43,664 bases of DNA from an uncultured Spirochaetota bacterium (GCA_903821875.1 CAIJMU010000144.1:1-43664); one strand, 5' to 3'. Positions 24,976 to 37,155 are shown, numbered from the stretch's first letter. Numbers and translations are program-made. Notes: a model not told the origin generated them from the letters alone.

Positions 24976-26751
24976 TCAATACCTCCCGCGCGGGGTGTAC
25001 TTTGTATGCAAGAGCTCGTGGGCCTTGTGGGAGTTCGGGGCGCCGAGGAAGTCCGCGTAGAGTTTCATGACAGCCGCGTTCTCGTGGGACTTCCGGATCT
25101 TGAAGCCCGAGTCCTCGGCGTAGATAGCCCTGGCGCGGGCCTCGCGTTTTTCAGGGGTGATCGGGAGGGGTTGGCCTCCCCCGCCGAGGCAGCCGCCCGG
25201 ACAGGTCATTATCTCGATGAAGTGCGGGGCGAGGGTGCCTGCCTTGACGGCCTCCATGACCGTCTTGGCATTGGCGGTGCCGTGCGCTATGAGGACCTTG
25301 AGCGTGACACCCTCGAGCCAGGAAAATTCCGGCTTGACGCCCGTGATGGTGAGGGCAGCCTCACGCACGCCCTCGAAGCCGCGCAATGGCGTGATGTCGA
25401 GGTGCTCGAAGGGGACTTCGCGGCCAGTGATGATTTCCCAGGCGCTGCGCAGGGCCGCCTCCATCACACCTCCGGTCGCAGCAAAGATCGTGGCGGCCCC
25501 CGTCGATTCGCCCAAGGGGCTGTCGAATTCGGAATCGGGAAGGGACTTGAGGTCGATGCCGGCCTGCTTGATCATCGCGGCGAGCTCGCGGGTGGTGAGG
25601 GCGAAGTCGACATCCTGGATGCCGTCGCGCCCCATCTCCGGCCGGCCGGCCTCGAATTTCTTCGCCGTGCAGGGCATCACCGAGGCGCAGTAGATATCCT
25701 GGGCCTTCAGCTTCATCCTGTCCGCCCAGTAGGTCTTCAGTAGTGCACCGAACATCTGCTGCGGTGACTTGCAGGTGGAAACATTGGGAAGGAGTTCGGG
25801 GAAAAAATGCTCCTGGAACTTGATCCAGCCCGGGGAGCAGGAGGTCGTCATCGGAAGGTTGGTACTCTTGCCTTCGACGAGGGCTCCCTTGAGGCGGGCG
25901 AGGAGCTCGTGGGCCTCCTCGAGGATCGTGAGGTCGGCGGTGAACTGCGTGTCGAAAACATAGTCAAAGCCCATCATCCGGAGGGCTGTCACCATCTTGC
26001 CGGTGACTCGTGTGCCGGGAGGATAGCCGAATTCCTCGCCGAGGGCGGCGCGGATGGCGGGCGCAGTCTGGATTGCGACGACCTTTCCGGGCTCGTCGAT
26101 GGCCTTCCAGACCTCCTCGACGGAGTACCTTTCATGGAGGGCTCCCGTGGGACAATGGGCGACGCATTGGCCACAATTGATACAGACGATTTCCGAGATC
26201 GGCTTGTTGAAGGCCGAACCGATGATCGTGCGGTCGCCCTTCCAGAGGTTCGCGAGGGCGCCGACACCCTGGAGGTCCTGGCAGGCCCGTATGCAGCGCT
26301 GGCAGAGGATGCACTTGTTGTTGTCGCGGACGAAGACCGGCGAGGACAGGTCGCGCGGGATGATCCTCTCGCGTCGCTCCTTCCAGCGCAGTTCCGTCAG
26401 TCCGTACTCGTTGGCGAGGCTCTGGAGCTCGCAGGAGAGGTTCTTCGGGCAGACCGTACAGTCGGTGTAATGGTTGGCCAGGAGGAGCTCGACGACGGTC
26501 TTCCTGGTGCGCCTCACCTTGTCGCCGGTCGTCATGACCTCCATCCCCTCCACCAGGGGCGTCGAGCAGGAGGCCTGGAGGGTCTTCGATCCCTTTACCT
26601 CGACGACGCAGATGCGACAGATTCCCTTGGTCCTGAGGTCGGGGTGGTCGCAGAGGGTCGGGACGTGGATGCCTTCGCGGCGGCAGAGCTCGAGGATGGT
26701 CATGCCCTCGGGGGCCTCGTGGTCGATCCCGTTTATCGTGACGTGGAGCAT
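24976..26751 (-). CDS. hydA: [FeFe]-hydrogenase catalytic subunit HydA
   Basis: The catalytic subunit of an NADH-linked [FeFe]-hydrogenase, 591 residues, cytoplasmic. Domains in order: N-terminal 2Fe-2S ferredoxin (C34, C45, C48, C62), His/Cys 4Fe-4S site (H94, C98, C101, C107), two 4Fe-4S sites (C147-C157 and C190-C200), H-cluster domain and C-terminal small-subunit domain. H-cluster motifs are TSCSPGW (303-309), MPCTAKK (359-365) and TCPGGCLGGGGQP (516-528). The first motif has Ser in place of one of the two adjacent cysteines of TSCCP; as far as I recall this variant is common in multi-subunit NAD(P)-linked enzymes. GGGGAGG precedes the start. It is the last gene of hydC-hydB-hydA; the HydEFG maturases are not in the window. 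Confidence 0.95.
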   Translation of the reverse strand: MLHVTINGIDHEAPEGMTILELCRREGIHVPTLCDHPDLRTKGICRICVVEVKGSKTLQASCSTPLVEGMEVMTTGDKVRRTRKTVVELLLANHYTDCTVCPKNLSCELQSLANEYGLTELRWKERRERIIPRDLSSPVFVRDNNKCILCQRCIRACQDLQGVGALANLWKGDRTIIGSAFNKPISEIVCINCGQCVAHCPTGALHERYSVEEVWKAIDEPGKVVAIQTAPAIRAALGEEFGYPPGTRVTGKMVTALRMMGFDYVFDTQFTADLTILEEAHELLARLKGALVEGKSTNLPMTTSCSPGWIKFQEHFFPELLPNVSTCKSPQQMFGALLKTYWADRMKLKAQDIYCASVMPCTAKKFEAGRPEMGRDGIQDVDFALTTRELAAMIKQAGIDLKSLPDSEFDSPLGESTGAATIFAATGGVMEAALRSAWEIITGREVPFEHLDITPLRGFEGVREAALTITGVKPEFSWLEGVTLKVLIAHGTANAKTVMEAVKAGTLAPHFIEIMTCPGGCLGGGGQPLPITPEKREARARAIYAEDSGFKIRKSHENAAVMKLYADFLGAPNSHKAHELLHTKYTPRGRY

Positions 26752-26764
26752 GTTTTCGCCTCCC

Positions 26765-27949
26765 CTATGCCGAAAGGATCTCGTCCCGGAACTTCGAGAC
26801 GATCGTGCGGAAGGAGTTGGGAACCGACTGGCCGAAGCCGCATTTCGAGGCGAGGCTCATCGTGTCCGCGAGCTCGAGGAGATCCGTGATGGTCCTGGAG
26901 TTGCCGTTGCCGGCCTCGAATTTCAGTATTCCCTCGGGCATGCGCGAGCAGCCCGCCCTGCAGGGCGTGCACTGCCCGCAGGACTCCTCCTGGAAGAACA
27001 TGACGAAGTTCTTGAGCATCTTGAACATCGAGCGGGACTTGTTAAGTATGATGATCGATCCCCCGGTCGGGATGCCTTCGAAGGCAAGGTGCTTGTCGAA
27101 ATCGTCAGCGCTCGCGCAGAAGCCCGAGGCTCCACCGATCTGCACTGCCTTGGTGTCGCCGTCGGCCTCCACCTCACGGAGGAGCTGCCTGATGGTGACG
27201 CCGTATTCGAACTCGTAGATGCCCGGCTTGGCACAGTCTCCGGACACAGAGAAGAGCTTTGAACCGGTTGAAACCGCGGTCCCGATCTGCCTGAACCAGT
27301 CCGAACCGTTGAGGATGATATGGGGTATGAAGGCCAGGGTCTCGACGTTGTTGACGACGGTGGGCATGCCGAGAAAGCCGTGCTCCACGGGGAAGGGCGG
27401 CTTGTTGCGCGGCTCGCCACGCCGTCCTTCGAGGGACTCCATGAGGGCCGTCTCCTCGCCGCAGACATAGGCGCCTGAGCCGAGGCGGAGCTCGAAGTCG
27501 AAGCAGAAGCCCTTGGAGTCGCAGATATTGTCGCCAAGGAGGCCGAGATTCCGCAGCTCCTCGATCTTCTGTGTTATGAGGGGTCTCATGTAGTCATACT
27601 CGCCGCGGAGATAGAGGAATCCCCGCGTTGCCCCTACGGCGCGGGCACCGATCACCATGCCCTCGACAACCTTGGCCGTGCGCTGCTCGAGGATCTTCTT
27701 GTCCTTGAAGGTACCCGGCTCGCCTTCGTCGGCGTTGCAGATGAAGCAGGCATCGTTCCCGGGCCGTGCGAGCATGTTCGCACGGGCGAATTTCCACTTG
27801 AGCCCCGTCGGGAAACCGGCCCCTCCCCTCCCCCGGAGGTTGGAGTCGGTCACGATCTTGATGATCTCGTCCTGACCCATCCCGAGGGCCTTCCGCAGGG
27901 CCAGCCCGGGTTCCAGCTCCGAGAACACGACGTCTATCTTTCGTGCCAT
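26765..27949 (-). CDS. hydB: Hydrogenase NADH-binding subunit HydB (NuoF-like)
   Basis: The FMN and NAD(H)-binding subunit, 394 residues, homologous to NuoF of complex I. It has the glycine-rich NADH loop GRGGAGFPTGLKW, the FMN-binding segment NADEGEPGTFKD, GAYVCGEETALMESLEG, and the 4Fe-4S cluster motif ESCGQCTPC with a further Cys in SKCGFG. The HydB of known electron-bifurcating hydrogenases has an extra N-terminal thioredoxin-like 2Fe-2S domain and a C-terminal two-cluster ferredoxin domain; both are missing here. This argues for an enzyme using NADH alone or with a simpler mechanism. The start at 27949 follows GAGGAAGGA, 11 bp after hydC. Confidence 0.93.
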   Translation of the reverse strand: MARKIDVVFSELEPGLALRKALGMGQDEIIKIVTDSNLRGRGGAGFPTGLKWKFARANMLARPGNDACFICNADEGEPGTFKDKKILEQRTAKVVEGMVIGARAVGATRGFLYLRGEYDYMRPLITQKIEELRNLGLLGDNICDSKGFCFDFELRLGSGAYVCGEETALMESLEGRRGEPRNKPPFPVEHGFLGMPTVVNNVETLAFIPHIILNGSDWFRQIGTAVSTGSKLFSVSGDCAKPGIYEFEYGVTIRQLLREVEADGDTKAVQIGGASGFCASADDFDKHLAFEGIPTGGSIIILNKSRSMFKMLKNFVMFFQEESCGQCTPCRAGCSRMPEGILKFEAGNGNSRTITDLLELADTMSLASKCGFGQSVPNSFRTIVSKFRDEILSA

Positions 27950-27960
27950 GGTCCTTCCTC

Positions 27961-28425
27961 CTACCTGTAGCCGCGGACGATGTCGACCGCCTTCGAGGGG
28001 GTGAGCCCGGCGTAGAGGTCTTCGTTCACCATCATCGAGGGCCCCTGGTCGCACATACCCATGCAATTGGCATAATCGAGGCTGTATCTGCCATCGGAGG
28101 TTGTTTCCCCGAGCTTGATGCCGAGCTCCGCCTCGAGGGCACGCTGCACCTTGTCCTTGTCCTTGAGGTCACAGGAGATCGTCCGGCAGATCCTGATGAC
28201 GAAACGCCCCCGCTTCTGGAGGTTGAGGAAGTGGTAGAAGGAAGCAACGGAAAATACCTCGGTCTGCGAAAGGCTGAATTTTCGGGCGACCTCGTTCACG
28301 ACCTCCTCGCCGATGAAGCCATATTCACGCTGGAGGCCCTGAAGGACGGGGAGCAGGGCCTCGCGGCCGTCCCCATGCTTGCGTTCGAGCTCCTCGATCT
28401 TCATGAGGAGCGACTCTCTCAACAT
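27961..28425 (-). CDS. hydC: Hydrogenase 2Fe-2S subunit HydC (NuoE-like)
   Basis: A 154-residue thioredoxin-like 2Fe-2S subunit homologous to NuoE. Four ligands are visible as CRTISC (about residues 79-84) and CMGMC (about 120-124). It passes electrons between the FMN subunit and HydA. The N-terminal helical domain (EALLPVLQGLQREYGFI) is complete. A strong AAGGAGGAAG site precedes the ATG. It is the first gene of the operon, 104 nt after the predicted transcription start. Confidence 0.93.
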   Translation of the reverse strand: MLRESLLMKIEELERKHGDGREALLPVLQGLQREYGFIGEEVVNEVARKFSLSQTEVFSVASFYHFLNLQKRGRFVIRICRTISCDLKDKDKVQRALEAELGIKLGETTSDGRYSLDYANCMGMCDQGPSMMVNEDLYAGLTPSKAVDIVRGYR

Positions 28426-28535: not shown

Positions 28536-28564
28536 AATATATATTAAAGAATCGTGATTGTTAA
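28536..28564 (-). promoter_or_regulatory. Promoter for hydCBA
   Basis: On the minus strand TTAACA (28559-28564) and TATATT (28536-28541) are separated by 17 bp, each 5/6 to consensus, in an AT-rich island within GC-rich DNA. It lies between the pgsW stop (28572) and hydC, so hydrogenase expression need not depend on the upstream operon. Confidence 0.7.
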
Positions 28565-28571
28565 TTTTGTA

Positions 28572-29744
28572 TCAGGGGTTCCCCGAAGAGCCTGCAGTAG
28601 CTATGTACTTATATAAAATGATATTAGCAAAACGCCGCGTCAGAAACCCCGAAGCCAAGGCAAGAGTGGCAAACAAAAAGACCCAGGCTGCGGGGAGCCT
28701 CGCCGGCAGACCGGGATCGGAGGGCCAGGAATCGGGATCCCAGGGAAGCCCATAGGAGGCAGAGAGATCCTTCACGTCGATGAGCCGGATGACGGGAATC
28801 CCCTCGGCAAGAAAGGACTGGACAAGCCCCCTTCCAGGCGCCTTCCCGGCAGGGAAGTCCCGCGGCCAGAGGATGCCCGACCGCCCGGCCAGGACGTCTC
28901 CAGGGCCTGTCGAGGCCAGGTTTCCGCCAATTGACACAATCGCGGCAAGGCGGCTGTCGCCTCTGAGCCCATCGATGAAGGCGCGCCGCAGGCCAATGGC
29001 CTCGTCGAGCGTGCCGGAGGACAGGAGCCTTGCCCCTCCCGCGACGGCTCGGTCGAGGACCCTGGCGAGGGCGTCTGGCTCGAGGTCGAGGCCACGGTCG
29101 AGGGCCCCTCCCGGGCTTACTGCATCGACCCTTCCATCGAGGATCCCGCGCCGGGACAGGGCGCCAACCATGTCGGCTAAGGAAAATTCCGGCCTGTTGG
29201 CGCCCCAGGTGGATGAGCCTGCCGAGGCGATAAAAATCGTCGTAATGCCCAATTCCTTGGCTGCAATAAGGCTGGCGATGGCGAAGCCCGGGAAGGAGGC
29301 AGAGCTGTCTATGGCCACGGTGTCGCCAGGCCTTGCACCAGCCCGGACGAGGAGGCGCACCAGGAGGGCGGCCGTAGCAGGTTGTGCGGCACTGCGCTTG
29401 GCCTCGAGGCTGCCGAGCGTGCTGGTGAGCCCTGACCAGCTGAGGCCGATGAGTCCCGAGCCCAGCGGATCGGAGGTGGGGTCGATGGAAAGGCCCCGGG
29501 CAGCGAGCTCTTCGGCGATGGCCGCCATGGCTGTCCGCATCCCTGCCGCAGCCTGGAGCTCCGCCTGAGCGGTCGGACCCGCCACGGAGAGGCCTGGCAG
29601 GACGAGGAAGGCTATAATGATAACTAGTACGAAAGCCCCGAGTCCCGCCAGCTCTCCGGCCTCCCCTGTGCGGGAGGCTGCGCCCGCCTGCAGGCGCGGG
29701 GCCAGGGACTTCCGCAAAGCGCCTCCCCTGCGCAGCTCCCTCAT
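28572..29744 (-). CDS. pgsW: Poly-gamma-glutamate system protein PgsW
   Basis: A 390-residue membrane-anchored protein of the family known as poly-gamma-glutamate system protein (TIGR04332, PgsW), found with PgsB and PgsC in spirochaetes and fusobacteria. It has an N-terminal transmembrane segment (about residues 34-56), a long external domain with conserved IDSSASFPGFAIASLIAAKELG and IASAGSSTWGANRPEF, and a second membrane segment near the C terminus (about 350-370). The start at 29744 overlaps the pgsC stop (ATGA). The enzymatic role is unknown; it takes the place where PgsA/CapA would be expected. Assignment rests on sequence recognition and the strict pgsB-pgsC-pgsW order. Confidence 0.85.
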   Translation of the reverse strand: MRELRRGGALRKSLAPRLQAGAASRTGEAGELAGLGAFVLVIIIAFLVLPGLSVAGPTAQAELQAAAGMRTAMAAIAEELAARGLSIDPTSDPLGSGLIGLSWSGLTSTLGSLEAKRSAAQPATAALLVRLLVRAGARPGDTVAIDSSASFPGFAIASLIAAKELGITTIFIASAGSSTWGANRPEFSLADMVGALSRRGILDGRVDAVSPGGALDRGLDLEPDALARVLDRAVAGGARLLSSGTLDEAIGLRRAFIDGLRGDSRLAAIVSIGGNLASTGPGDVLAGRSGILWPRDFPAGKAPGRGLVQSFLAEGIPVIRLIDVKDLSASYGLPWDPDSWPSDPGLPARLPAAWVFLFATLALASGFLTRRFANIILYKYIATAGSSGNP

Positions 29745-30175
29745 GCCCCGAGCCCCATCCACAGGAGGCGGACAAAGGCCGCCCCCGCAGCGAGCGCAAA
29801 CAGCGTTCGCAGCGGGCCCTGGCGATCGGCTTCTGCGGCGATGATGCCGGGAACCAGCCAGCCCACGGCGGCAAACAGCGGAGCCTCGGGTGCCAGGCCG
29901 GGCAGGACCCGCTCGAGAAGGAAGCGCGCGATGAAGCCAGCCAGCAGGAAGGAGGCGTAGCGCCGCCTTCCGAAGAGGATGAGCTGTCCGCCAAGGAGCC
30001 TCACGGCAAGGAGGGCGAAGGCAGCATCGGCCAGGGTTGCGGCGAGCCTGAGCGGGGAGTCCGCATAGAGGGCGATAAAGCCCGGGACGATGACCCCTCC
30101 GGGCGACAGGCCGATGAGTTCGGTCATGAGGAGGCTCGTGACGACTCCGAGCACCAGGATATATTCAGAATTCAT
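29741..30175 (-). CDS. pgsC: Poly-gamma-glutamate biosynthesis protein PgsC
   Basis: A 144-residue integral membrane protein with about four or five hydrophobic segments and the family's usual length (about 149). The conserved opening is YILVLGVVTSLLMTELIGLSPGGVIVPGFIALY. In Bacillus, PgsC/CapC associates with PgsB/CapB to form the membrane-bound ligase that polymerises glutamate through its gamma-carboxyl group. The start at 30175 lies inside pgsB (11-nt overlap) and follows GGAAGGATCC, implying translational coupling. Confidence 0.9.
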   Translation of the reverse strand: MNSEYILVLGVVTSLLMTELIGLSPGGVIVPGFIALYADSPLRLAATLADAAFALLAVRLLGGQLILFGRRRYASFLLAGFIARFLLERVLPGLAPEAPLFAAVGWLVPGIIAAEADRQGPLRTLFALAAGAAFVRLLWMGLGA

Positions 30176-31325
30176 GGGATCCTTCCGCCAGCAGTGGTCC
30201 GACACCCTTCCAGTTGCCGACAGCCACGACGATGCTGCCACCCGCCAGCGTCGCAAGCCTGTCGGACAGCTGACGTCGGGCAACGTGGCGGACGCGTTGG
30301 TGCCCAGGGCCAGGGGGGAGGGCCGAGCGGAGACAGAGCCAGGAGGCCAGTGAGGGGAATCCCGAGAGCAGCACTTCATCCCAATTAGCTGCATTGGCGG
30401 CTGCCCAGCGGGCGAAGGCCTGGCTGCGGTCGGGACGGTCGGCGCGGCAGGCGATGAGGAGGACGCGCCGTGCGGAAGGCGCATCGCCTTCGGACCGCGG
30501 GCTGGCTGGCCGCCACCCGGCTGGCCCGATGAGGGCCTCGGTAGAGGCGACATCGTTGGCGGCGAGGGCATTGAGGATGGTGAGCTCGCCTCCGTCGCGG
30601 GTTGGCAGGCGACGGATGGAGAAGGCGCCAGGATCCGGGAGGAAGTTCCGCATTGCGACAATCGAGGCTTCGTTGGATGCACCTACAGCACGCGCTACGG
30701 CGAGGGCCAGGCCGGCATTGTCAGGAACGACGGCACTGCTGCCTTCGAGGGGAACCGTGAGCATGAGCTCAGCGCCTGCGGCGGCTGCTGGCCCTGCGAA
30801 GGCCTTGGCCACAGCAGGATCGGAGGTCAGTACCTGACCACCGACAGGGATGCCTCGGGAAAACACCTCCATCGTAGTGGCGACATCCCCGAGCTCAAGA
30901 CGGTGGTCGGCCCGGACGTTGGTGACCGCGAGGATGGAAGGCGAGAGGAAGGCATCGGAAGCGTACTGCGCGTCGGCCCTGACGGCCATGCACTCGGCCA
31001 CAAGGGCTTTTGCTCCGAGCCTCCGTGCCTCGAAGAGGAGCCAGCGCTGCTCGCGCACATCCGCTGCACCCCTTCTCCGCAGACGGATCTCATTCCCATC
31101 GGGAAGGATCAGCCTCGGCTCGGTGCCCGTGGTCTTGGCCAGGGTCCTGATGCCCGAAGCCCTGAGCGCGGCGGCGATGAGGCGCGTCGTCTCGGACTTG
31201 CCCCGTGTTCCATTGACGTGGATGACGACAGGGACTCTGGCGCGGGCACGGGCCAGAAGGAAGCGCTCCCCGAAAAGGAAGACGAACCACCCAATTGCCA
31301 GAATAAAGGCGAGCCACCCGATCAT
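30165..31325 (-). CDS. pgsB: Poly-gamma-glutamate synthase PgsB
   Basis: The ATP-dependent amide ligase of poly-gamma-glutamate synthesis, 386 residues, related to Mur ligases and folylpolyglutamate synthase. An N-terminal membrane anchor (residues 3-20) is followed by the P-loop NGTRGKSETTR (38-48), then TTGTEPRLI, the VAECMAV segment and TNVRADH, all typical of PgsB/CapB. It is translationally coupled on both sides (ATGA with the upstream M14 gene, overlap with pgsC). Whether the product is a true polymer or short gamma-glutamyl chains cannot be told from sequence. Confidence 0.92.
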   Translation of the reverse strand: MIGWLAFILAIGWFVFLFGERFLLARARARVPVVIHVNGTRGKSETTRLIAAALRASGIRTLAKTTGTEPRLILPDGNEIRLRRRGAADVREQRWLLFEARRLGAKALVAECMAVRADAQYASDAFLSPSILAVTNVRADHRLELGDVATTMEVFSRGIPVGGQVLTSDPAVAKAFAGPAAAAGAELMLTVPLEGSSAVVPDNAGLALAVARAVGASNEASIVAMRNFLPDPGAFSIRRLPTRDGGELTILNALAANDVASTEALIGPAGWRPASPRSEGDAPSARRVLLIACRADRPDRSQAFARWAAANAANWDEVLLSGFPSLASWLCLRSALPPGPGHQRVRHVARRQLSDRLATLAGGSIVVAVGNWKGVGPLLAEGSHEF

Positions 31326-32095
31326 GGGGAAAGGAGCCCGAGGGCGGAAAGGAGGGCAGTGACTGCCATGGTCTGGAGCTCCAGCCGTTCCGGGAGAGGC
31401 AGGCGCGCAGGGACCTCTATGGTCACGGCCGCCGTCCCGACCTGTCCAAGCTCATGATTAAGACTGCCATGGGGTGCGCCGCCGGTGAAGGCGAAGCCCG
31501 CCTCCGAAAGCCCCTTCCCTTCCCCATCGGAGCCTTCAAGCGCCGCGAGGGCGATAGCCGCCGACTGGGCATTGGTGACAAGGGTGGGCCTGTCGGACTC
31601 GAGCCAGGCGAGGCCCTCCTCGTGGAGGTCCAGGACGAGGTCATAGCCGCGCAGTGCCGCAAACAGATCCCTGGCTCGGACAGCCTCGGGGCTGGAACTT
31701 CCCTCCCCTCCCGGGAAAAGGCGGTTCAAGTCGAGCCCCGAGGGACCGCTCCTCGAGGCAGCGGCGAGCGGATTTGCGACAGCAACGACCATGACGGTGC
31801 CGCAAGCCAGGCGGCCCGAAAGCCAGGCAGGCAGGGCCTCTGCCGCAGCGATGCCCGAGGACTCATCCCAATGGATGCCACCGACGATGGCTACCCTCGG
31901 TCCGGGCTTCCCCGACTCGATCTGGACCGCGTCTGCGAGGGCCGGCAGCAGGTCTGCCGCCGGCGCGCTCTTCGGCGAAACGCGTGCAGCCGAATTGCCC
32001 ATAGCCGGCAAACCTGCGCAGGCGGTGAAAAACACGAGCACGAGGGCCAGCGCCACTGTTGCCCTGGACAGCTGCGCCGCGTCCGGGCGCCTCAT
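31322..32095 (-). CDS. M14 aspartoacylase-like lipoprotein (second copy)
   Basis: A 257-residue member of the succinylglutamate desuccinylase/aspartoacylase branch of M14 zinc enzymes. Zinc ligands are H75 and E78 in GGIHWDES and H158 in LDLHEEG; the substrate-binding LDLNRLFPG follows the family pattern. The N terminus has a signal sequence ending in FFTAC (C26), probably a lipoprotein. I chose the ATG at 32095 (7 bp after the previous stop) because the longer frame reads through another gene. Family members hydrolyse amide bonds next to acidic residues, and phage gamma-PGA hydrolase PghP is also M14-like, so cleavage of gamma-glutamyl bonds is a reasonable proposal. Confidence 0.82.
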   Translation of the reverse strand: MRRPDAAQLSRATVALALVLVFFTACAGLPAMGNSAARVSPKSAPAADLLPALADAVQIESGKPGPRVAIVGGIHWDESSGIAAAEALPAWLSGRLACGTVMVVAVANPLAAASRSGPSGLDLNRLFPGGEGSSSPEAVRARDLFAALRGYDLVLDLHEEGLAWLESDRPTLVTNAQSAAIALAALEGSDGEGKGLSEAGFAFTGGAPHGSLNHELGQVGTAAVTIEVPARLPLPERLELQTMAVTALLSALGLLSP

Positions 32096-32102
32096 CCCGC
32101 TC

Positions 32103-33236
32103 TCACAGTAGCTTGCCGAGGCCCCCGGCGACGAACTCGTCGTAACTGGGAATACCCTCGTAGGTGATGGGTCGATCGGGGTGCTGCTCCGACCAGGCAG
32201 CGAATATCGCCGCGAGTCCCGCCGCATGGCGCCCGACCCGCGTTTCCAGGGGCCAGCCCTTCGCGTCGTAGGGCACAAAGAGGCGGCCGAGGGCCTTGGC
32301 CTTGAGATAGAAGGGGTCCTGACCCTTGAGGATGAGGGCCTCGTCAGTAACGCCCCGCAGCCTGCCCTGGGAGGGATTGGCAGCCTCCATGAGGATGGCG
32401 AGGGTATCGGTCGCGTCCCCGAGCTCTCGGTGCGACAGCCCGTGGAGTTTCACCGGGGAGGGTTCGAGGCCCATCGTAACCCCGTCGAATTCGAGGTTGA
32501 GCACTGCCACCGAGGCGACCTTCATCGCCCTGTCGTGGGCGACGATGGCGTTGATGACCGGATACTCGGGGGAGGCCTCGTGGAGGTCGACCGTCACGTC
32601 GATCCTCTCGGCCAGTATCATGCTAGTTATGGCAAACGTCACCTTTTCGGTGAAGGTACCGTCGGGCCTTCCGGGGTAGGCCCGGTTGAGGTTGCGCGTC
32701 TCCGAGCCGGAGAGCCTCTGGCCAGAGGCAGCATGGACGTAGATGTCGGGATCCGGCCACTGGTCGACGGGACTCGTTGCCCTCGAGCCGAAGCGGAACT
32801 TCCTCGGGCCCGAGGCCCCCAGGATGGTGAAGTGCCGGGGTTCACCCTCCATGTAGTCGGTATGCGTAAAGCCGGATGCATTGGCATTCGTAATTATGAA
32901 GAGTTTTCCCGATTCTGGCTTCGCGTTCTCGACGAGGATGATGGCCGTCATCCAGCCGGCGGGCTCGTTGGGGTGGGTGCCGCCGATGACGAGGGCCGAG
33001 CCGCCCGGCTTCCCCGAGTCCAGGACATAGACCTCCGAGTCACCGGCAGAGCCCTTGAGGCCAGGAAACCAGTCGGAAAGCCGCTTCACTTCGGTGACGC
33101 CAGGACCCTTCCTGATCGTATCGGGCTTCCGCATCTCGAGGTCGGAGGGGATCACGAGTCCCAGCACGAGGCATACCGCCGCGACCAGGCCGAGGGAAAG
33201 GGGAAGCCTGGGGAATTTCTTCACAGTGCTGTCCAT
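32103..33236 (-). CDS. Membrane-anchored M14 aspartoacylase-like protein
   Basis: A 377-residue protein with an N-terminal transmembrane anchor (about residues 12-30) and an M14 succinylglutamate desuccinylase/aspartoacylase-like domain. Zinc ligands H88 and E91 in GGTHPNEPAG and H219 in VDLHEAS are intact, and RNLNRAYPG (181-189) matches the substrate-binding segment. The catalytic domain should face the periplasm. It precedes the smaller M14 lipoprotein by 7 bp. Two paralogues in tandem suggest different chain-length or end specificities on a gamma-glutamyl substrate, which is inference from the operon. Confidence 0.83.
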   Translation of the reverse strand: MDSTVKKFPRLPLSLGLVAAVCLVLGLVIPSDLEMRKPDTIRKGPGVTEVKRLSDWFPGLKGSAGDSEVYVLDSGKPGGSALVIGGTHPNEPAGWMTAIILVENAKPESGKLFIITNANASGFTHTDYMEGEPRHFTILGASGPRKFRFGSRATSPVDQWPDPDIYVHAASGQRLSGSETRNLNRAYPGRPDGTFTEKVTFAITSMILAERIDVTVDLHEASPEYPVINAIVAHDRAMKVASVAVLNLEFDGVTMGLEPSPVKLHGLSHRELGDATDTLAILMEAANPSQGRLRGVTDEALILKGQDPFYLKAKALGRLFVPYDAKGWPLETRVGRHAAGLAAIFAAWSEQHPDRPITYEGIPSYDEFVAGGLGKLL

Positions 33237-33246
33237 CCTGCCCCCC

Positions 33247-33393
33247 CTACGCGATCATGAGGGCGCGGAGCGCCAGCGGCACCAGGATGATCGCCGCATT
33301 GATCTTGAGTTTTGCGCTCTTCTGGCTGAAGAGCTCGGCCATCACAAGGACGGCCGCGAGGACGACGATGAGCCTGTAAATAATGGTGATCAT
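33247..33393 (-). CDS. Small two-helix membrane protein
   Basis: A 48-residue protein, MITIIYRLIVVLAAVLVMAE then a short Lys-rich loop and a second hydrophobic stretch. It has two predicted membrane segments (about 4-20 and 31-47). The start codon is 2 bp after the permease stop and follows CTGGGAG, so it is clearly part of the operon. I do not recognise a family. It could be an accessory subunit of the permease, standing in for the small DctQ subunit of TRAP transporters, or of the Pgs complex. Confidence 0.7.
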   Translation of the reverse strand: MITIIYRLIVVLAAVLVMAELFSQKSAKLKINAAIILVPLALRALMIA

Positions 33394-33395
33394 GG

Positions 33396-34670
33396 TCACA
33401 CTCCCAGGAACTTCGCGATGGGATTGGCCCACACGAGCATGGCAACTCCCACCAGGACGGCGAGGACCGCGGGCAGGAGCGCCAGCTTCACGATGCGCCC
33501 GTATCGCGGCTCGCAAATGAGCTGTGCAGTGACTACCGGCGTGAGCGCGACCGGCGGCATGTAGCTGCCCATGGCGCCGATCAGCGAGAGGGCGGAAAGC
33601 ACGACGATCTGGTTCTGCCCCAGGAGGGCGAGCGCGAAGGGTACACCGAGGACGCTCGCTCCGCCGTAGACGGAGATGCCGCCAAAGAGGGGCAGCGATA
33701 CGGCGATGACAGCGAGCATGAGGGCCGGTGGTACGGAGAGGGCTCCCACCACGATGGCGCCACGGATCCCGGTCATCGTCATCATCTCGATGAGCATGCC
33801 GACACCAAAGAGGATGCCCACCACGGGGAGGATCTCGCTCACGCCAGCGCGAGCGGCCCTGACCACGTCGAAGCGCCTCCCTACGAGGAGCCCCGAGGCG
33901 GCCGAGATCATGAAGGTGAGGGGCATCCGGGGATCGGGGAACCAGGTGGGAAAGGCCTTAGGCCCCACCATGAGGATGACTGCGACCAGGAGGGGCAGGT
34001 AGGCGGCCAGGCCGACGGAACCTGTCTCCGCCCGCTTCGATTCGATCACATTCGCGAGGGCAGTGCGGTCGACGTGCCTGTATCCGATGATCAGCGTCGT
34101 GAGGATCGCCAAAGGAAAGGAGACCAGGGCCAGGACGCCGTCGAAGCCTATGTAGGGCAGGTCGATGCCCCCACCGATTATCATGATTGGTATGTTTACC
34201 GGAGGGGCGATCATGCCGTAGACGGCTGCGCTCGAGATCACTGCACCGACCACAGGCAGGGGCATCCCCATGGCCAGGAGGATGGGCGATACCAGCGTCC
34301 CGGTCCCCAGGACGCTGGCAGTGCAGGAACCGGTGATCATGCCGGGAAACATGATGACGATCGTGAGCGCCACCAGCAACAGGAGGGGGGAGCTGCCGAA
34401 GCGCAGCGTGATGGAACGCGTGAGCCCGGCCAGAAGTCCGTTCCCCTCGATCACCTTGAGGAAGATCATGGCAGTTATGAGGACCAGCCCGGTATCGAGG
34501 TAGCCGAACATCCCTTCGACGAGCTGGTCGAGGGGAATGCCCCTCCCCGCCAGGAGTGGAAGCGCCACGGCGGTGATCACGAGGCTGAGCGATACCGGCA
34601 GCTTCGCGACGAGCACGAGGCCGACAAAGGCCAGCACCATGAAGGCGAGGAGGAGGAACTGGGTCGTCAT
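33396..34670 (-). CDS. DctM-like large permease (TRAP/ion-transporter superfamily)
   Basis: A 424-residue polytopic membrane protein with about 11-12 hydrophobic segments. Features such as FPGMITGSCTASVLGTGTLVSPILLAMGMP and the AAVYGMIAPPVNIPIMIIGG repeat region resemble the DctM subunit of TRAP transporters and related ion-transporter superfamily members. No DctP binding protein or regular DctQ subunit is encoded nearby. The substrate is likely an anionic amino acid or dicarboxylate; inside this operon glutamate or gamma-glutamyl oligomers are plausible. It starts 9 bp after the DUF6305-like gene. Confidence 0.78.
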   Translation of the reverse strand: MTTQFLLLAFMVLAFVGLVLVAKLPVSLSLVITAVALPLLAGRGIPLDQLVEGMFGYLDTGLVLITAMIFLKVIEGNGLLAGLTRSITLRFGSSPLLLLVALTIVIMFPGMITGSCTASVLGTGTLVSPILLAMGMPLPVVGAVISSAAVYGMIAPPVNIPIMIIGGGIDLPYIGFDGVLALVSFPLAILTTLIIGYRHVDRTALANVIESKRAETGSVGLAAYLPLLVAVILMVGPKAFPTWFPDPRMPLTFMISAASGLLVGRRFDVVRAARAGVSEILPVVGILFGVGMLIEMMTMTGIRGAIVVGALSVPPALMLAVIAVSLPLFGGISVYGGASVLGVPFALALLGQNQIVVLSALSLIGAMGSYMPPVALTPVVTAQLICEPRYGRIVKLALLPAVLAVLVGVAMLVWANPIAKFLGV

Positions 34671-34679
34671 GTCACATCC

Positions 34680-35252
34680 CTACTTGAAGGCCTTGAAGAG
34701 TGGATCACCAGCCTTCGTGATCTTCTCCACAGAGTCGAGGGGGATCTTCGCGGCCGCGCAGAGCTTTGTGAACAGCCCGTCGGCATTGCCCTCGGCCACG
34801 ACGATCACATAGTCGCAGGAGGCAACCGTAGCCAGGATGAACTTGTCGGAGAGTTCGCCACGGCGGGCCTCACCGCCGACATGGATGCCGATGATCTTAA
34901 GACCTAGTTTTTTTGCCTCGGCCAGGAGGACCTTGGCCCGGTCGAGCTCGGCGTCGGCGGAGATGCCCGCGGCACCGAGGCCCTTGGAGGAGCCACCTAT
35001 CGCAATTATGAGGGTCTTTGCCCCGGAGGCCGCAAGGCCACCTGCCTTGACCTGCGGATCGGCCTTGTAGTCGAGCTTGGAGCGGTCGAGGAGGACCTTC
35101 ACCATCTCGACATCCGCGCTCTGGCCTATGGATATGAGGAGGGCGGGCTTCGAGGCGATGGGCGCCTTCAGCGTGTAGGTCTGGGCCGACAGCGATGCTG
35201 ATAGAAGGAGGAGTGCCGGGAGGAAGGTCAGGGAGCGGGATGGCAAACGCAT
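34680..35252 (-). CDS. Exported DUF6305-like protein
   Basis: A 190-residue protein with a signal peptide (cleavage near SLSAQ, residue 24). The mature part has a conserved ALLISIGQSADVEMVKVLLDR opening and a Rossmann-like alternation (TLIIAIGGSSKGLGAAG, KIIGIHVGGEARRGELSD). I associate this pattern with the family called DUF6305, which occurs next to pgsBCW genes; this is recognition from memory. Function unknown. It may be a periplasmic binding partner for the permease that follows. The start follows AAGGTGAAAG. Confidence 0.7.
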   Translation of the reverse strand: MRLPSRSLTFLPALLLLSASLSAQTYTLKAPIASKPALLISIGQSADVEMVKVLLDRSKLDYKADPQVKAGGLAASGAKTLIIAIGGSSKGLGAAGISADAELDRAKVLLAEAKKLGLKIIGIHVGGEARRGELSDKFILATVASCDYVIVVAEGNADGLFTKLCAAAKIPLDSVEKITKAGDPLFKAFK

Positions 35253-35309
35253 GCTTTCACCTTGTACGGAAAGGATGGCACCGAGGCGGCTCGTCGCCGC
35301 CCTGGCGCC

Positions 35310-35337
35310 GTGAAGCGGCAGCAGAGTGCCGCTTCAC
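35310..35337 (-). promoter_or_regulatory. Perfect hairpin after ggt
   Basis: An 11-bp perfect stem (35310-35320 with 35327-35337) with a 6-nt loop lies 6 bp past the ggt stop and 57 bp before the DUF6305-like gene. No U-tract follows on the minus strand. It probably stabilises the ggt mRNA 3' end or partly attenuates downstream genes. Confidence 0.6.
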
Positions 35338-35343
35338 AGTGGG

Positions 35344-37092
35344 TCAGTAGGCAACTCCCTGTCCGTCGCGGCGGGGGTCGGCGCCGGCGTAGAGGGTCTT
35401 GGTCGCATAGTCATAGAGACAGCCCTGGGATACGCCCTGAGAGGGCGAGTAGTCGTCCTGGAAGAGGAGCTTGTGCCCGAGCGCTGTCAGGCCGTTGGTG
35501 GTCGACACGGGAATCCGGCCTTCGACGTTGTAGTCGGAGGTATTGGTACGATATATGCGCGGGGCGCTGATGGCAGCCTGGATGGACATGCCATGGTCGA
35601 CGACGTCGGAGATGATCTGGGCGACTGCGGTGATGATGCGCGTAGCGCCGGCAGCGCCGAGGGTCATGAAGGAGCGGCCCTGGGGATCGAGCACGAGGGT
35701 CGGGCTCATCGAGGACAGGGGGCGCTTCTTGGGTTCGACGGAGTTGACCGAACCGGGCTTGAGGACGAAGTCGTCCATGTGGTTGTTCATCACGATGCCG
35801 GTGCCGGGAATGACGACGCCTGAACCGAAGAAATAATTGATCGACTTGGTGCAGGCGACCATGTTGCCGTCCTTGTCCATGACGGAGAAGGAGGTCGTCG
35901 AGCCACTCTCATACTTGGAAGGATCGCCGGGCGCGACGGGGGTCGGCATTACCTTGTCGAGGGCGATGAGGGCCGCAAGGTCCTTGGCGTAGGCCTTGGA
36001 AGTGAGTCCCGTAAGGGGCACCTTCACGAAGGCGGTATCGGCCATGAACTGCGCACGGTCCGCGTAGACGAGCCGCATCGCCTCGCCCCAAAGCTGGAGG
36101 GACTTGGCGGTGTTCTGCCCGTAGGACTTCATGTCGAAGTTCTCGAGGATGTTGAGGAGCTGGATGATGTGCGTGCCACCCGAGGAGGCAGGAGGCGTCG
36201 ATATGATGGTGTAATTGCGATAGGTTCCGGTAACGGGCTTGCGGGCCTCGACCTTGTATCCGCGCATGTCGGCCAGGCTCAGGATGCCACCCTGGGCAAG
36301 GACCTCGGAAACGACGGCAGCCGCGATCGGCCCCTCGTAGAAGGCCTTGGCGCCGTCGGCCTGGATGGCCTTCAGTGTGGCCTGGAGATCGGGGTTCTGG
36401 ATCGTGTCGCCGATGTCGTAGGGAAGGCCGTCCTTCAGGTAGAGGGAGGCTGCGGCGGGGAACTGCTTGATCTTGTCGAAGTTGTCCTTGATGGCCCCTG
36501 CGAGGTTGGAGGTCACGGGAACCTTCATCGCCCAGTCGACGGCGGGCTGCATGACAGCCTGGCGAGTCATGGTCTTCCCGGTCTTCTGCGCCACCGAACC
36601 ATAGTTCTCAAGGGCATAGAGGAGGCCGGCCACATCTCCAGGTACACCGGAGGCGAGTCCTCCGACCTGGGAGCCTGGCCCGACGATCGCGCTGGCGGTG
36701 GAGTCGGTCCGCTTGGCGGGCAGCTGGGTCTTGCCATCCTCGCTATACTTGAACATATCTGGTTTCGAGGCGATGGGAGCCATCTCGCGGAAGTCGATGA
36801 CGATGGGATCCTTGCCGACGAGCTTGATGGTAATGAAACCGCCGCCGCCGAGGCCGTTGGCGTTGGGCTCAAGGACGCCCTGGGCGAAGCCGATGGCCAC
36901 TGCCGCATCGACGGCGTTCCCGCCCTTCTTGAGGATATCGATTCCTACCTGGGCTGAATCGGGTTTCGCCGTGGCGACGACACCGTTGGCGCCCTGCGCC
37001 CCCCGCGTATGGAGATTTGCGGGCACGGCCTGTCCGAAGGCGACCGAGACGGCACCGGACAACGCTATCCCGATCACAATGATTCTATTCAT
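35344..37092 (-). CDS. ggt: Secreted gamma-glutamyltransferase
   Basis: A 582-residue N-terminal-nucleophile enzyme that cleaves and transfers gamma-glutamyl groups; homologues PgsD/CapD process poly-gamma-glutamate. A signal peptide (about 1-20, SVAFG) sends it to the periplasm. Autocleavage is predicted before T399 in GSTTSFSV, giving large and small subunits; the PLSSMSPT segment and GAAGATRI oxyanion region follow. The usual His after the Thr pair (TTH) is Ser here. AGGAGG precedes the ATG. It is the first gene of the operon ending in pgsW, with a promoter at 37127-37155. Context makes gamma-PGA a likelier substrate than glutathione. Confidence 0.92.
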   Translation of the reverse strand: MNRIIVIGIALSGAVSVAFGQAVPANLHTRGAQGANGVVATAKPDSAQVGIDILKKGGNAVDAAVAIGFAQGVLEPNANGLGGGGFITIKLVGKDPIVIDFREMAPIASKPDMFKYSEDGKTQLPAKRTDSTASAIVGPGSQVGGLASGVPGDVAGLLYALENYGSVAQKTGKTMTRQAVMQPAVDWAMKVPVTSNLAGAIKDNFDKIKQFPAAASLYLKDGLPYDIGDTIQNPDLQATLKAIQADGAKAFYEGPIAAAVVSEVLAQGGILSLADMRGYKVEARKPVTGTYRNYTIISTPPASSGGTHIIQLLNILENFDMKSYGQNTAKSLQLWGEAMRLVYADRAQFMADTAFVKVPLTGLTSKAYAKDLAALIALDKVMPTPVAPGDPSKYESGSTTSFSVMDKDGNMVACTKSINYFFGSGVVIPGTGIVMNNHMDDFVLKPGSVNSVEPKKRPLSSMSPTLVLDPQGRSFMTLGAAGATRIITAVAQIISDVVDHGMSIQAAISAPRIYRTNTSDYNVEGRIPVSTTNGLTALGHKLLFQDDYSPSQGVSQGCLYDYATKTLYAGADPRRDGQGVAY

Positions 37093-37126
37093 GGAAGCCT
37101 CCTGGGGAAATTTGTGAGACCGCTAA

Positions 37127-37155
37127 ATATCAAGCCCCGGGCCCACGCCTGTCAA
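37127..37155 (-). promoter_or_regulatory. Promoter for the ggt-pgsW operon
   Basis: On the minus strand a consensus TTGACA (37150-37155) lies 17 bp from a weaker TGATAT (37127-37132). The predicted start is near 37120, about 28 nt before ggt. Confidence 0.55.

What the first reader, a model, noticed from the sequence alone, without database searches (positions are those of the whole stretch)
28572..37155. A nine-gene gamma-glutamyl polymer system: ggt, DUF6305-like, permease, 48-aa protein, two M14, pgsB, pgsC, pgsW
All nine genes are on one strand. Most junctions overlap or are under 12 bp; the largest gap (91 bp) follows ggt. PgsB and PgsC make the ligase core and PgsW replaces PgsA/CapA. 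Two zinc amidohydrolases and a secreted gamma-glutamyltransferase could cut the product, and a DctM-like permease with an exported DUF6305-like protein could move glutamate or oligomers. The pgsBCW core is known by name, but a joined make-trim-transport-degrade cassette in a spirochaete is to my knowledge not characterised. A proposed role is an envelope or osmoprotective gamma-glutamyl polymer that is also recycled.
Basis: partly seen in the sequence, partly recalled or inferred. Interest (0 to 1): 0.8.

Follow-up and report, generated by a model that had tools for sequence, protein, structure and literature searches.

The report
Conserved γ-polyglutamate make-and-recycle operon
This spirochaete carries a nine-gene operon that probably builds a chain of γ-linked glutamates and also cuts it and takes the pieces back up; the same gene set recurs beside the polymer-making genes in spirochaetes, acidobacteria and clostridia, and I found no description of it as one system.

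Summary
Nine ORFs lie on the minus strand with gaps of 91, 9, 2, 10, 7, -4, -11 and -4 bp, behind one promoter-like site. Profiles identify GGT, DUF6305, a distant DctM-like permease, two AstE/AspA-type zinc amidohydrolases, PgsB, PgsC and the TIGR04332 protein ("PgsW"). The 48-aa ORF is a real gene (dN/dS 0.1-0.4, three phyla). No CapA/PgsA family member was found in the genome.

The module ggt - DUF6305 - permease - 48-aa - M14 recurs next to pgsBCW in Spirochaetota, Holophagaceae and Clostridia. All 14 strong DUF6305 genomes among 393 Spirochaetota carry PgsW (p = 4e-20), and the permease is equally tied to it. Gene order and strand vary while adjacency stays. The permease tree mixes phyla, which suggests cassette transfer.

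So this is a separable synthesis core plus a turnover/uptake/sensing module.

Polymer identity, re-uptake and substrates are inferred. Novelty: new variant of a known kind (Pgs/Cap), with a candidate TRAP-like transporter of unfamiliar parts.

The parts
37126..37155 (-). promoter-like site TTGACA-18-GATATT upstream of ggt
   Evidence: 10/12 consensus matches; consensus only
35344..37092 (-). secreted gamma-glutamyltransferase (582 aa; Sec signal peptide; nucleophile Thr399, Arg102)
   Evidence: PF01019 2.6e-146, TIGR00066 5e-143; Thr399 aligns with residue 1 of the mature small chain of solved GGTs; T399 invariant and R102 97% in 30 cassette GGTs
34680..35252 (-). DUF6305 exported protein (190 aa), putative ligand-binding partner of the permease
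   Evidence: PF19823 2.2e-48; signal peptide; lipobox in clostridial orthologues; single alpha/beta domain, pLDDT 83.7
33396..34670 (-). DctM-like permease (424 aa, about 11 TM)
   Evidence: PF06808 3.7e-5, just under cutoff; profile matches the M domain of isethionate TRAP transporter 9pym over 15-418, E 0.003
33247..33393 (-). 48-aa two-TM protein, putative small subunit of the permease
   Evidence: conserved between permease and M14a in three phyla; dN/dS about 0.1-0.4; two hydrophobic segments
32103..33236 (-). M14a: signal-anchored AstE/AspA-type zinc amidohydrolase (377 aa)
   Evidence: PF24827; H88, E91, N182, R185, H219, E220 invariant and E284 99% in 74 sequences
31322..32095 (-). M14b: exported, lipoprotein-like AstE/AspA-type zinc amidohydrolase (257 aa)
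   Evidence: PF24827 4.4e-14; HxxE, DLNR, DLHE and Glu invariant
30165..31325 (-). PgsB/CapB ligase (386 aa; NGTRGKSE P-loop)
   Evidence: TIGR04012 8.1e-64; G39, R41, G42, K43 invariant
29741..30175 (-). PgsC/CapC membrane subunit (144 aa)
   Evidence: PF14102 1.4e-30, TIGR04011 3.9e-27
28572..29744 (-). PgsW (TIGR04332), TM - exported alpha/beta domain - TM (390 aa)
   Evidence: TIGR04332 8.1e-81; model pLDDT 75.6 with N- and C-terminal TM helices

Best explanation
An operon for a complete gamma-glutamyl polymer cycle. PgsB (ATP-dependent gamma-glutamyl ligase) and PgsC polymerise glutamate at the inner membrane. PgsW, anchored by a TM helix at each end with an exported domain, takes the structural or export place of PgsA/CapA. 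Outside the membrane the polymer is cut: GGT removes or transfers single gamma-glutamyl residues, and two AstE/AspA-type zinc amidohydrolases (M14a membrane-anchored, M14b lipoprotein-like) cut gamma-glutamyl amides next to a free carboxylate. Glutamate or short gamma-glutamyl oligomers are bound by exported DUF6305 and imported by the DctM-like permease with its 48-aa two-TM subunit. Shown: gene content, operon layout, intact catalytic residues, conservation of the association in three phyla, DUF6305-M14 fusion and DUF6305-kinase pairing elsewhere. Inferred: polymer identity, direction of transport, ligand, and physiological role (a removable envelope, matrix or reserve polymer).
For: Family and active-site evidence. 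No PGA_cap family member in the genome. Neighbourhood conserved with changing order and strand in Spirochaetota, Holophagaceae and Clostridia. DUF6305/PgsW co-occurrence 14/14 in Spirochaetota, p 4e-20. In a Bacillota sample 23 of 25 PgsW genomes have DUF6305, p 2e-22; the contigs of the two exceptions start or end at the pgs genes. The permease in spirochaetes occurs in 13 PgsW+ genomes and one PgsW- genome, whose hit is on a 3.9-kb contig, p 1e-17. DUF6305-M14 fusion in pgsBCW operons. Biochemical precedents: GGT removes single residues from gamma-PGA, and PghP, a Zn enzyme related to carboxypeptidase A, hydrolyses it (PMC4497714).
Against: No member of the operon was assayed and no product is known from any of these organisms. 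DUF6305 does not have the two-lobed binding-protein fold; fold searches gave only generic alpha/beta matches. M14a/M14b resemble N-acyl-amino-acid deacylases and are not PghP (PF05908) members. pgsBCW occurs without the module in nine spirochaetes. In G342 the two parts lie on different large contigs.
Confidence: 0.6

Rival explanations
1. Cap-like attachment system: GGT works mainly as a CapD-type transpeptidase that anchors or sizes the polymer on the envelope, the M14 enzymes trim the anchor peptide, and the permease only supplies glutamate to PgsB.
For: CapD of B. anthracis is a GGT-family enzyme encoded in the cap operon and anchors gamma-PGA (PMC4497714, PMC3815933). CapD is among the solved-structure matches. 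Solved relatives of M14b include the murein peptide amidase MpaA, which by general knowledge cuts a gamma-D-glutamyl bond in wall peptides.
Against: The closest solved relatives are canonical GGTs, not CapD (E 1e-108 against 1e-41), and canonical substrate residues are kept. It does not explain the DUF6305-M14 fusion or the tight permease/48-aa/M14a linkage.
Confidence: 0.2
2. Glutamate-supply and scavenging module: the exported hydrolases, DUF6305 and permease digest and import environmental gamma-glutamyl peptides (such as glutathione) or N-acyl amino acids as a feedstock, and PgsBCW stores the surplus; the own polymer is not their substrate.
For: M14a/M14b profiles score best against deacylases such as DoeB and AstE. 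Free-standing DUF6305 genes lie beside peptide ABC transporters. pgsBCW can exist alone.
Against: The permease is nearly absent from spirochaetes without pgsW, whereas a general scavenging system should not depend on pgsBCW. The DUF6305-M14 fusion gene directly follows or overlaps pgsW in the same operon.
Confidence: 0.15
3. Chance neighbourhood of unrelated genes on one strand.
For: In spirochaetes of families f38, f25 and f59 pgsBCW stands alone.
Against: Repeated adjacency in three phyla with altered order, p-values from 1e-16 to 1e-22, and a gene fusion.
Confidence: 0.02

Closest known systems
Bacillus pgsBCA(E)/pgdS and B. anthracis/Staphylococcus capBCAD poly-gamma-glutamate operons
   Same: PgsB and PgsC core; a GGT-family enzyme in the operon (as capD); linked polymer-cutting enzyme
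   Different: PgsW (TIGR04332) with no PgsA/CapA found in the genome; AstE/AspA-type M14 hydrolases in place of PgdS; a permease, a 48-aa membrane protein and DUF6305 in the operon
TRAP transporters (DctP/DctQ/DctM)
   Same: About 11-TM permease remotely homologous to DctM/IseM over its full length; an exported protein and a small membrane protein encoded beside it
   Different: Weak DctM score, under the Pfam cutoff; no DctP or TAXI binding protein; a 48-aa two-TM protein in place of DctQ; DUF6305 is a small single-domain alpha/beta protein
PghP-type gamma-PGA hydrolases (PF05908, M14-like zinc enzymes)
   Same: Zinc hydrolases related to carboxypeptidase A with an inferred gamma-PGA substrate
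   Different: The cassette enzymes belong to AstE_AspA_cat (PF24827), not PF05908; exported and encoded with the synthase
AstE/AspA/DoeB deacylases
   Same: PF24827 domain; HxxE...NR...DLHE...E active site conserved
   Different: Exported or membrane-anchored, linked to polymer synthesis; far below the DoeB, AspA and AstE curated cutoffs

Membership tests
Pgs/Cap poly-gamma-glutamate synthase system | PgsB ligase with P-loop | tested here: met
   TIGR04012 E 8.1e-64, 7 bits under the curated cutoff; NGTRGKSE motif, G39/R41/G42/K43 invariant in 51 sequences
Pgs/Cap poly-gamma-glutamate synthase system | PgsC/CapC subunit next to PgsB | tested here: met
   PF14102 over cutoff, overlapping pgsB by 11 bp
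Pgs/Cap poly-gamma-glutamate synthase system | PgsA/CapA (PF09587) subunit (accessory in CapsuleFinder, PMC5542703) | tested here: not met
   No PF09587 match in the whole genome; control genomes ring. A TIGR04332 protein stands in its place
Pgs/Cap poly-gamma-glutamate synthase system | Produces gamma-PGA | not testable with these tools
   Needs chemistry
TRAP transporter | DctM large subunit | tested here: inconclusive
   PF06808 23.2 bits against cutoff 23.8; profile E 0.003 to 9pym, full length
TRAP transporter | DctQ small subunit (PF04290) | tested here: not met
   The 48-aa protein has no DctQ match; only two TM segments
TRAP transporter | DctP or TAXI-type extracytoplasmic binding protein | tested here: not met
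   The exported protein of the operon matches DUF6305 (PF19823) only
GGT (T03) | N-terminal nucleophile Thr and gamma-glutamyl-binding Arg | tested here: met
   T399 at the start of the mature small chain in solved GGTs; T399 100% and R102 97% in 30 sequences
M14 AstE/AspA | HxxE + H zinc ligands, NR carboxylate site, catalytic Glu | tested here: met
   Invariant or nearly so in 74 M14a sequences and invariant in 9 M14b sequences
PghP gamma-PGA hydrolase (PF05908) | PF05908 domain | tested here: not met
   M14a and M14b match PF24827 only

The most novel reading that the evidence does not exclude
DUF6305, the DctM-like permease and the 48-aa two-TM protein form a new class of tripartite TRAP-like importer dedicated to gamma-glutamyl oligomers. 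With the M14/GGT trimming enzymes, and in Clostridia a DUF6305-linked histidine kinase/response regulator that reads the same ligand, it makes a make-trim-sense-reimport cycle for a bacterium's own gamma-PGA, spread between phyla as a cassette.
Probability: 0.35. Interest if true: 0.75.

Novelty: new variant of a known kind. Interest (0 to 1): 0.6.

Why it matters
Bacterial γ-PGA is studied almost only in Bacilli as a one-way product (capsule or slime). A conserved operon that pairs the synthase with exported hydrolases and an importer would make it a recyclable polymer in diderm and clostridial anaerobes. It would also give candidate functions to DUF6305, to PgsW, to a 48-aa membrane protein and to an M14 subfamily for which I found no characterised member, and supply new γ-PGA depolymerases.

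Tried and rejected
Structural assignment of DUF6305: a good model (pLDDT 83.7) but only generic alpha/beta neighbours (best Z 9.7, rmsd 3.0, 143 aligned, tied among kinases, a UDP-GlcNAc epimerase and others), so no family was assigned. PgsW model (pLDDT 75.6): no match under E 0.001 and best Z 7.5, within background. Common origin of DUF6305 and PgsW: hhalign probability 3%, rejected. Sequence search of PDB with DUF6305 and PgsW profiles: only weak, unrelated hits. Chance clustering: rejected. DUF6305 as strictly a permease partner: rejected, since 23 pgsW-minus clostridial genomes carry DUF6305 and no permease-module gene was found around the 20 or so such loci that were fetched. Literature: no paper names PgsW as a protein, DUF6305 or TIGR04332, and none joins γ-PGA, GGT and TRAP transporters. 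A broader γ-PGA plus TRAP search returned two papers whose abstracts are unrelated; they were not read in full. Only open-licence papers were searchable.

Full report
OBSERVATION. The nine genes exist as described, all on the minus strand, 37092 down to 28572. Gaps in order are 91, 9, 2, 10, 7, -4, -11 and -4 bp. This fits one transcription unit bounded by other operons; transcription itself was not tested.

IDENTITIES. Profile searches give GGT (PF01019), DUF6305 (PF19823), a DctM-like permease just under cutoff, two AstE_AspA_cat zinc enzymes, PgsB (TIGR04012, slightly under cutoff), PgsC (PF14102 over cutoff, TIGR04011 slightly under) and the TIGR04332 "poly-gamma-glutamate system protein". 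The permease profile matches the M domain of the isethionate TRAP transporter over its whole length (E 0.003). Catalytic residues are intact: GGT Thr399 and Arg102; M14a H88/E91/N182/R185/H219/E284; the same set in M14b; the PgsB P-loop. GGT, DUF6305, M14a and M14b carry export signals, and clostridial DUF6305 orthologues have lipoboxes. No PGA_cap (CapA/PgsA) gene was found in the whole genome.

THE 48-AA GENE IS REAL. It sits between permease and M14a in Spirochaetota, Holophagaceae and Clostridia, has two hydrophobic segments, and shows dN/dS of about 0.1-0.4 against close relatives.

NEIGHBOURHOOD TEST. PgsW (TIGR04332) occurs in 23 of 393 sampled Spirochaetota genomes, strong DUF6305 in 14, and all 14 are among the 23 (Fisher 4e-20). 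In nine of the 14 the two gene sets lie within about 10 kb; in four a contig end intervenes; in one (G342) they lie on separate large contigs. The permease subfamily, searched independently, occurs in 13 PgsW+ genomes and one PgsW- genome, where the hit is on a 3.9-kb contig that also holds orf48 and M14a (p 1e-17). In 398 genomes of the phylum of Pygmaiobacter (Bacillota), 25 have PgsW over the cutoff and 23 of these have DUF6305 (p 2e-22). At least 18 of the 25 have DUF6305 or the permease within about 7 kb of pgsBCW. The two PgsW genomes without a DUF6305 hit have contigs that break off at the cassette or the pgs genes. Holophagaceae contigs show ggt-DUF6305-permease-48aa-M14a-pgsBC(W). Order and strand change between lineages (convergent in L040, divergent in L179) while adjacency stays, which argues for functional linkage.

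MODULARITY AND TRANSFER. Nine PgsW spirochaetes lack the module, so the synthase core is separable. In a permease tree the window's protein groups with Holophagaceae (100/100), away from other spirochaete clades, and the spirochaete label needs at least five changes on well-supported branches. Horizontal transfer is the likely reason, though paralogy is not excluded.

CLUES TO DUF6305. (i) In three clostridial genomes (L130, L133, L135) DUF6305 is fused to a complete M14 domain, and that gene directly follows or overlaps pgsW. (ii) In pgsW-minus Clostridia a divergent DUF6305 has no permease module but lies beside a multi-TM histidine kinase in most fetched loci, with a response regulator where read and often an oligopeptide ABC transporter. 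(iii) The same kinase type lies near pgsW in L037-L039, L130, L131, L133-L135, L145, L178, L188 and L189. A small exported protein that pairs with a permease, a hydrolase and a sensor kinase is most simply a ligand-binding protein; ligand binding itself is inferred. The predicted fold is a single alpha/beta domain without a specific known match, so it is not a classical two-lobed binding protein.

MECHANISM. PgsBC(W) synthesis follows from established Pgs/Cap biochemistry. That GGT removes single residues from γ-PGA, and that zinc enzymes related to carboxypeptidase A hydrolyse it, is established for other proteins (PMC4497714). TRAP-type carriers are importers by general knowledge. Put together: make, cut outside, bind, re-import. 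The identity and stereochemistry of the polymer, transport direction and physiological role are not shown. A C69 dipeptidase in 21 of the related loci adds another exported peptidase to many cassettes.

LITERATURE. CapsuleFinder models PGA capsules on CapABCDE, with CapB and CapC mandatory (PMC5542703). The γ-PGA hydrolase survey used PgsB/PgsC and PghP only (PMC4497714). Fusobacterium nucleatum is the Gram-negative producer listed in PMC3815933, and Cloacimonadota carry capBCA (PMC13082233). No paper found names DUF6305, TIGR04332 or PgsW as a protein, or describes this operon; only open-licence papers were searchable.

VERDICT. It is a new variant of the Pgs/Cap kind with an uncharacterised, TRAP-like but not TRAP-conforming, transport and sensing module.

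Noticed in passing
L130:9813-11021, L133:11120-12328, L135:11360-12562: DUF6305-M14 (AstE/AspA) fusion protein encoded directly after pgsW in three clostridial genomes.
   Followed up: yes
L132, L138, L140, L142, L143, L144, L148, L163: DUF6305 without the permease module, beside a multi-TM histidine kinase and, where read, a response regulator, often near an opp-type peptide ABC transporter.
   Followed up: partly
L055, L056, L058, L059, L154, L130 and others (21 loci): Exported C69-family dipeptidase genes lie within or beside the cassette in one branch of Spirochaetota and many Clostridia.
   Followed up: partly
L042:5262-6547: Permease gene broken by an in-frame stop beside pgsBCW; an intact copy lies elsewhere in the same genome (L174).
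   Followed up: no
window 24976-28425: Downstream operon for an NADH-dependent group A6 [FeFe] hydrogenase (NuoE-like, NuoF-like, HydA), with its own promoter-like site at 28564.
   Followed up: partly
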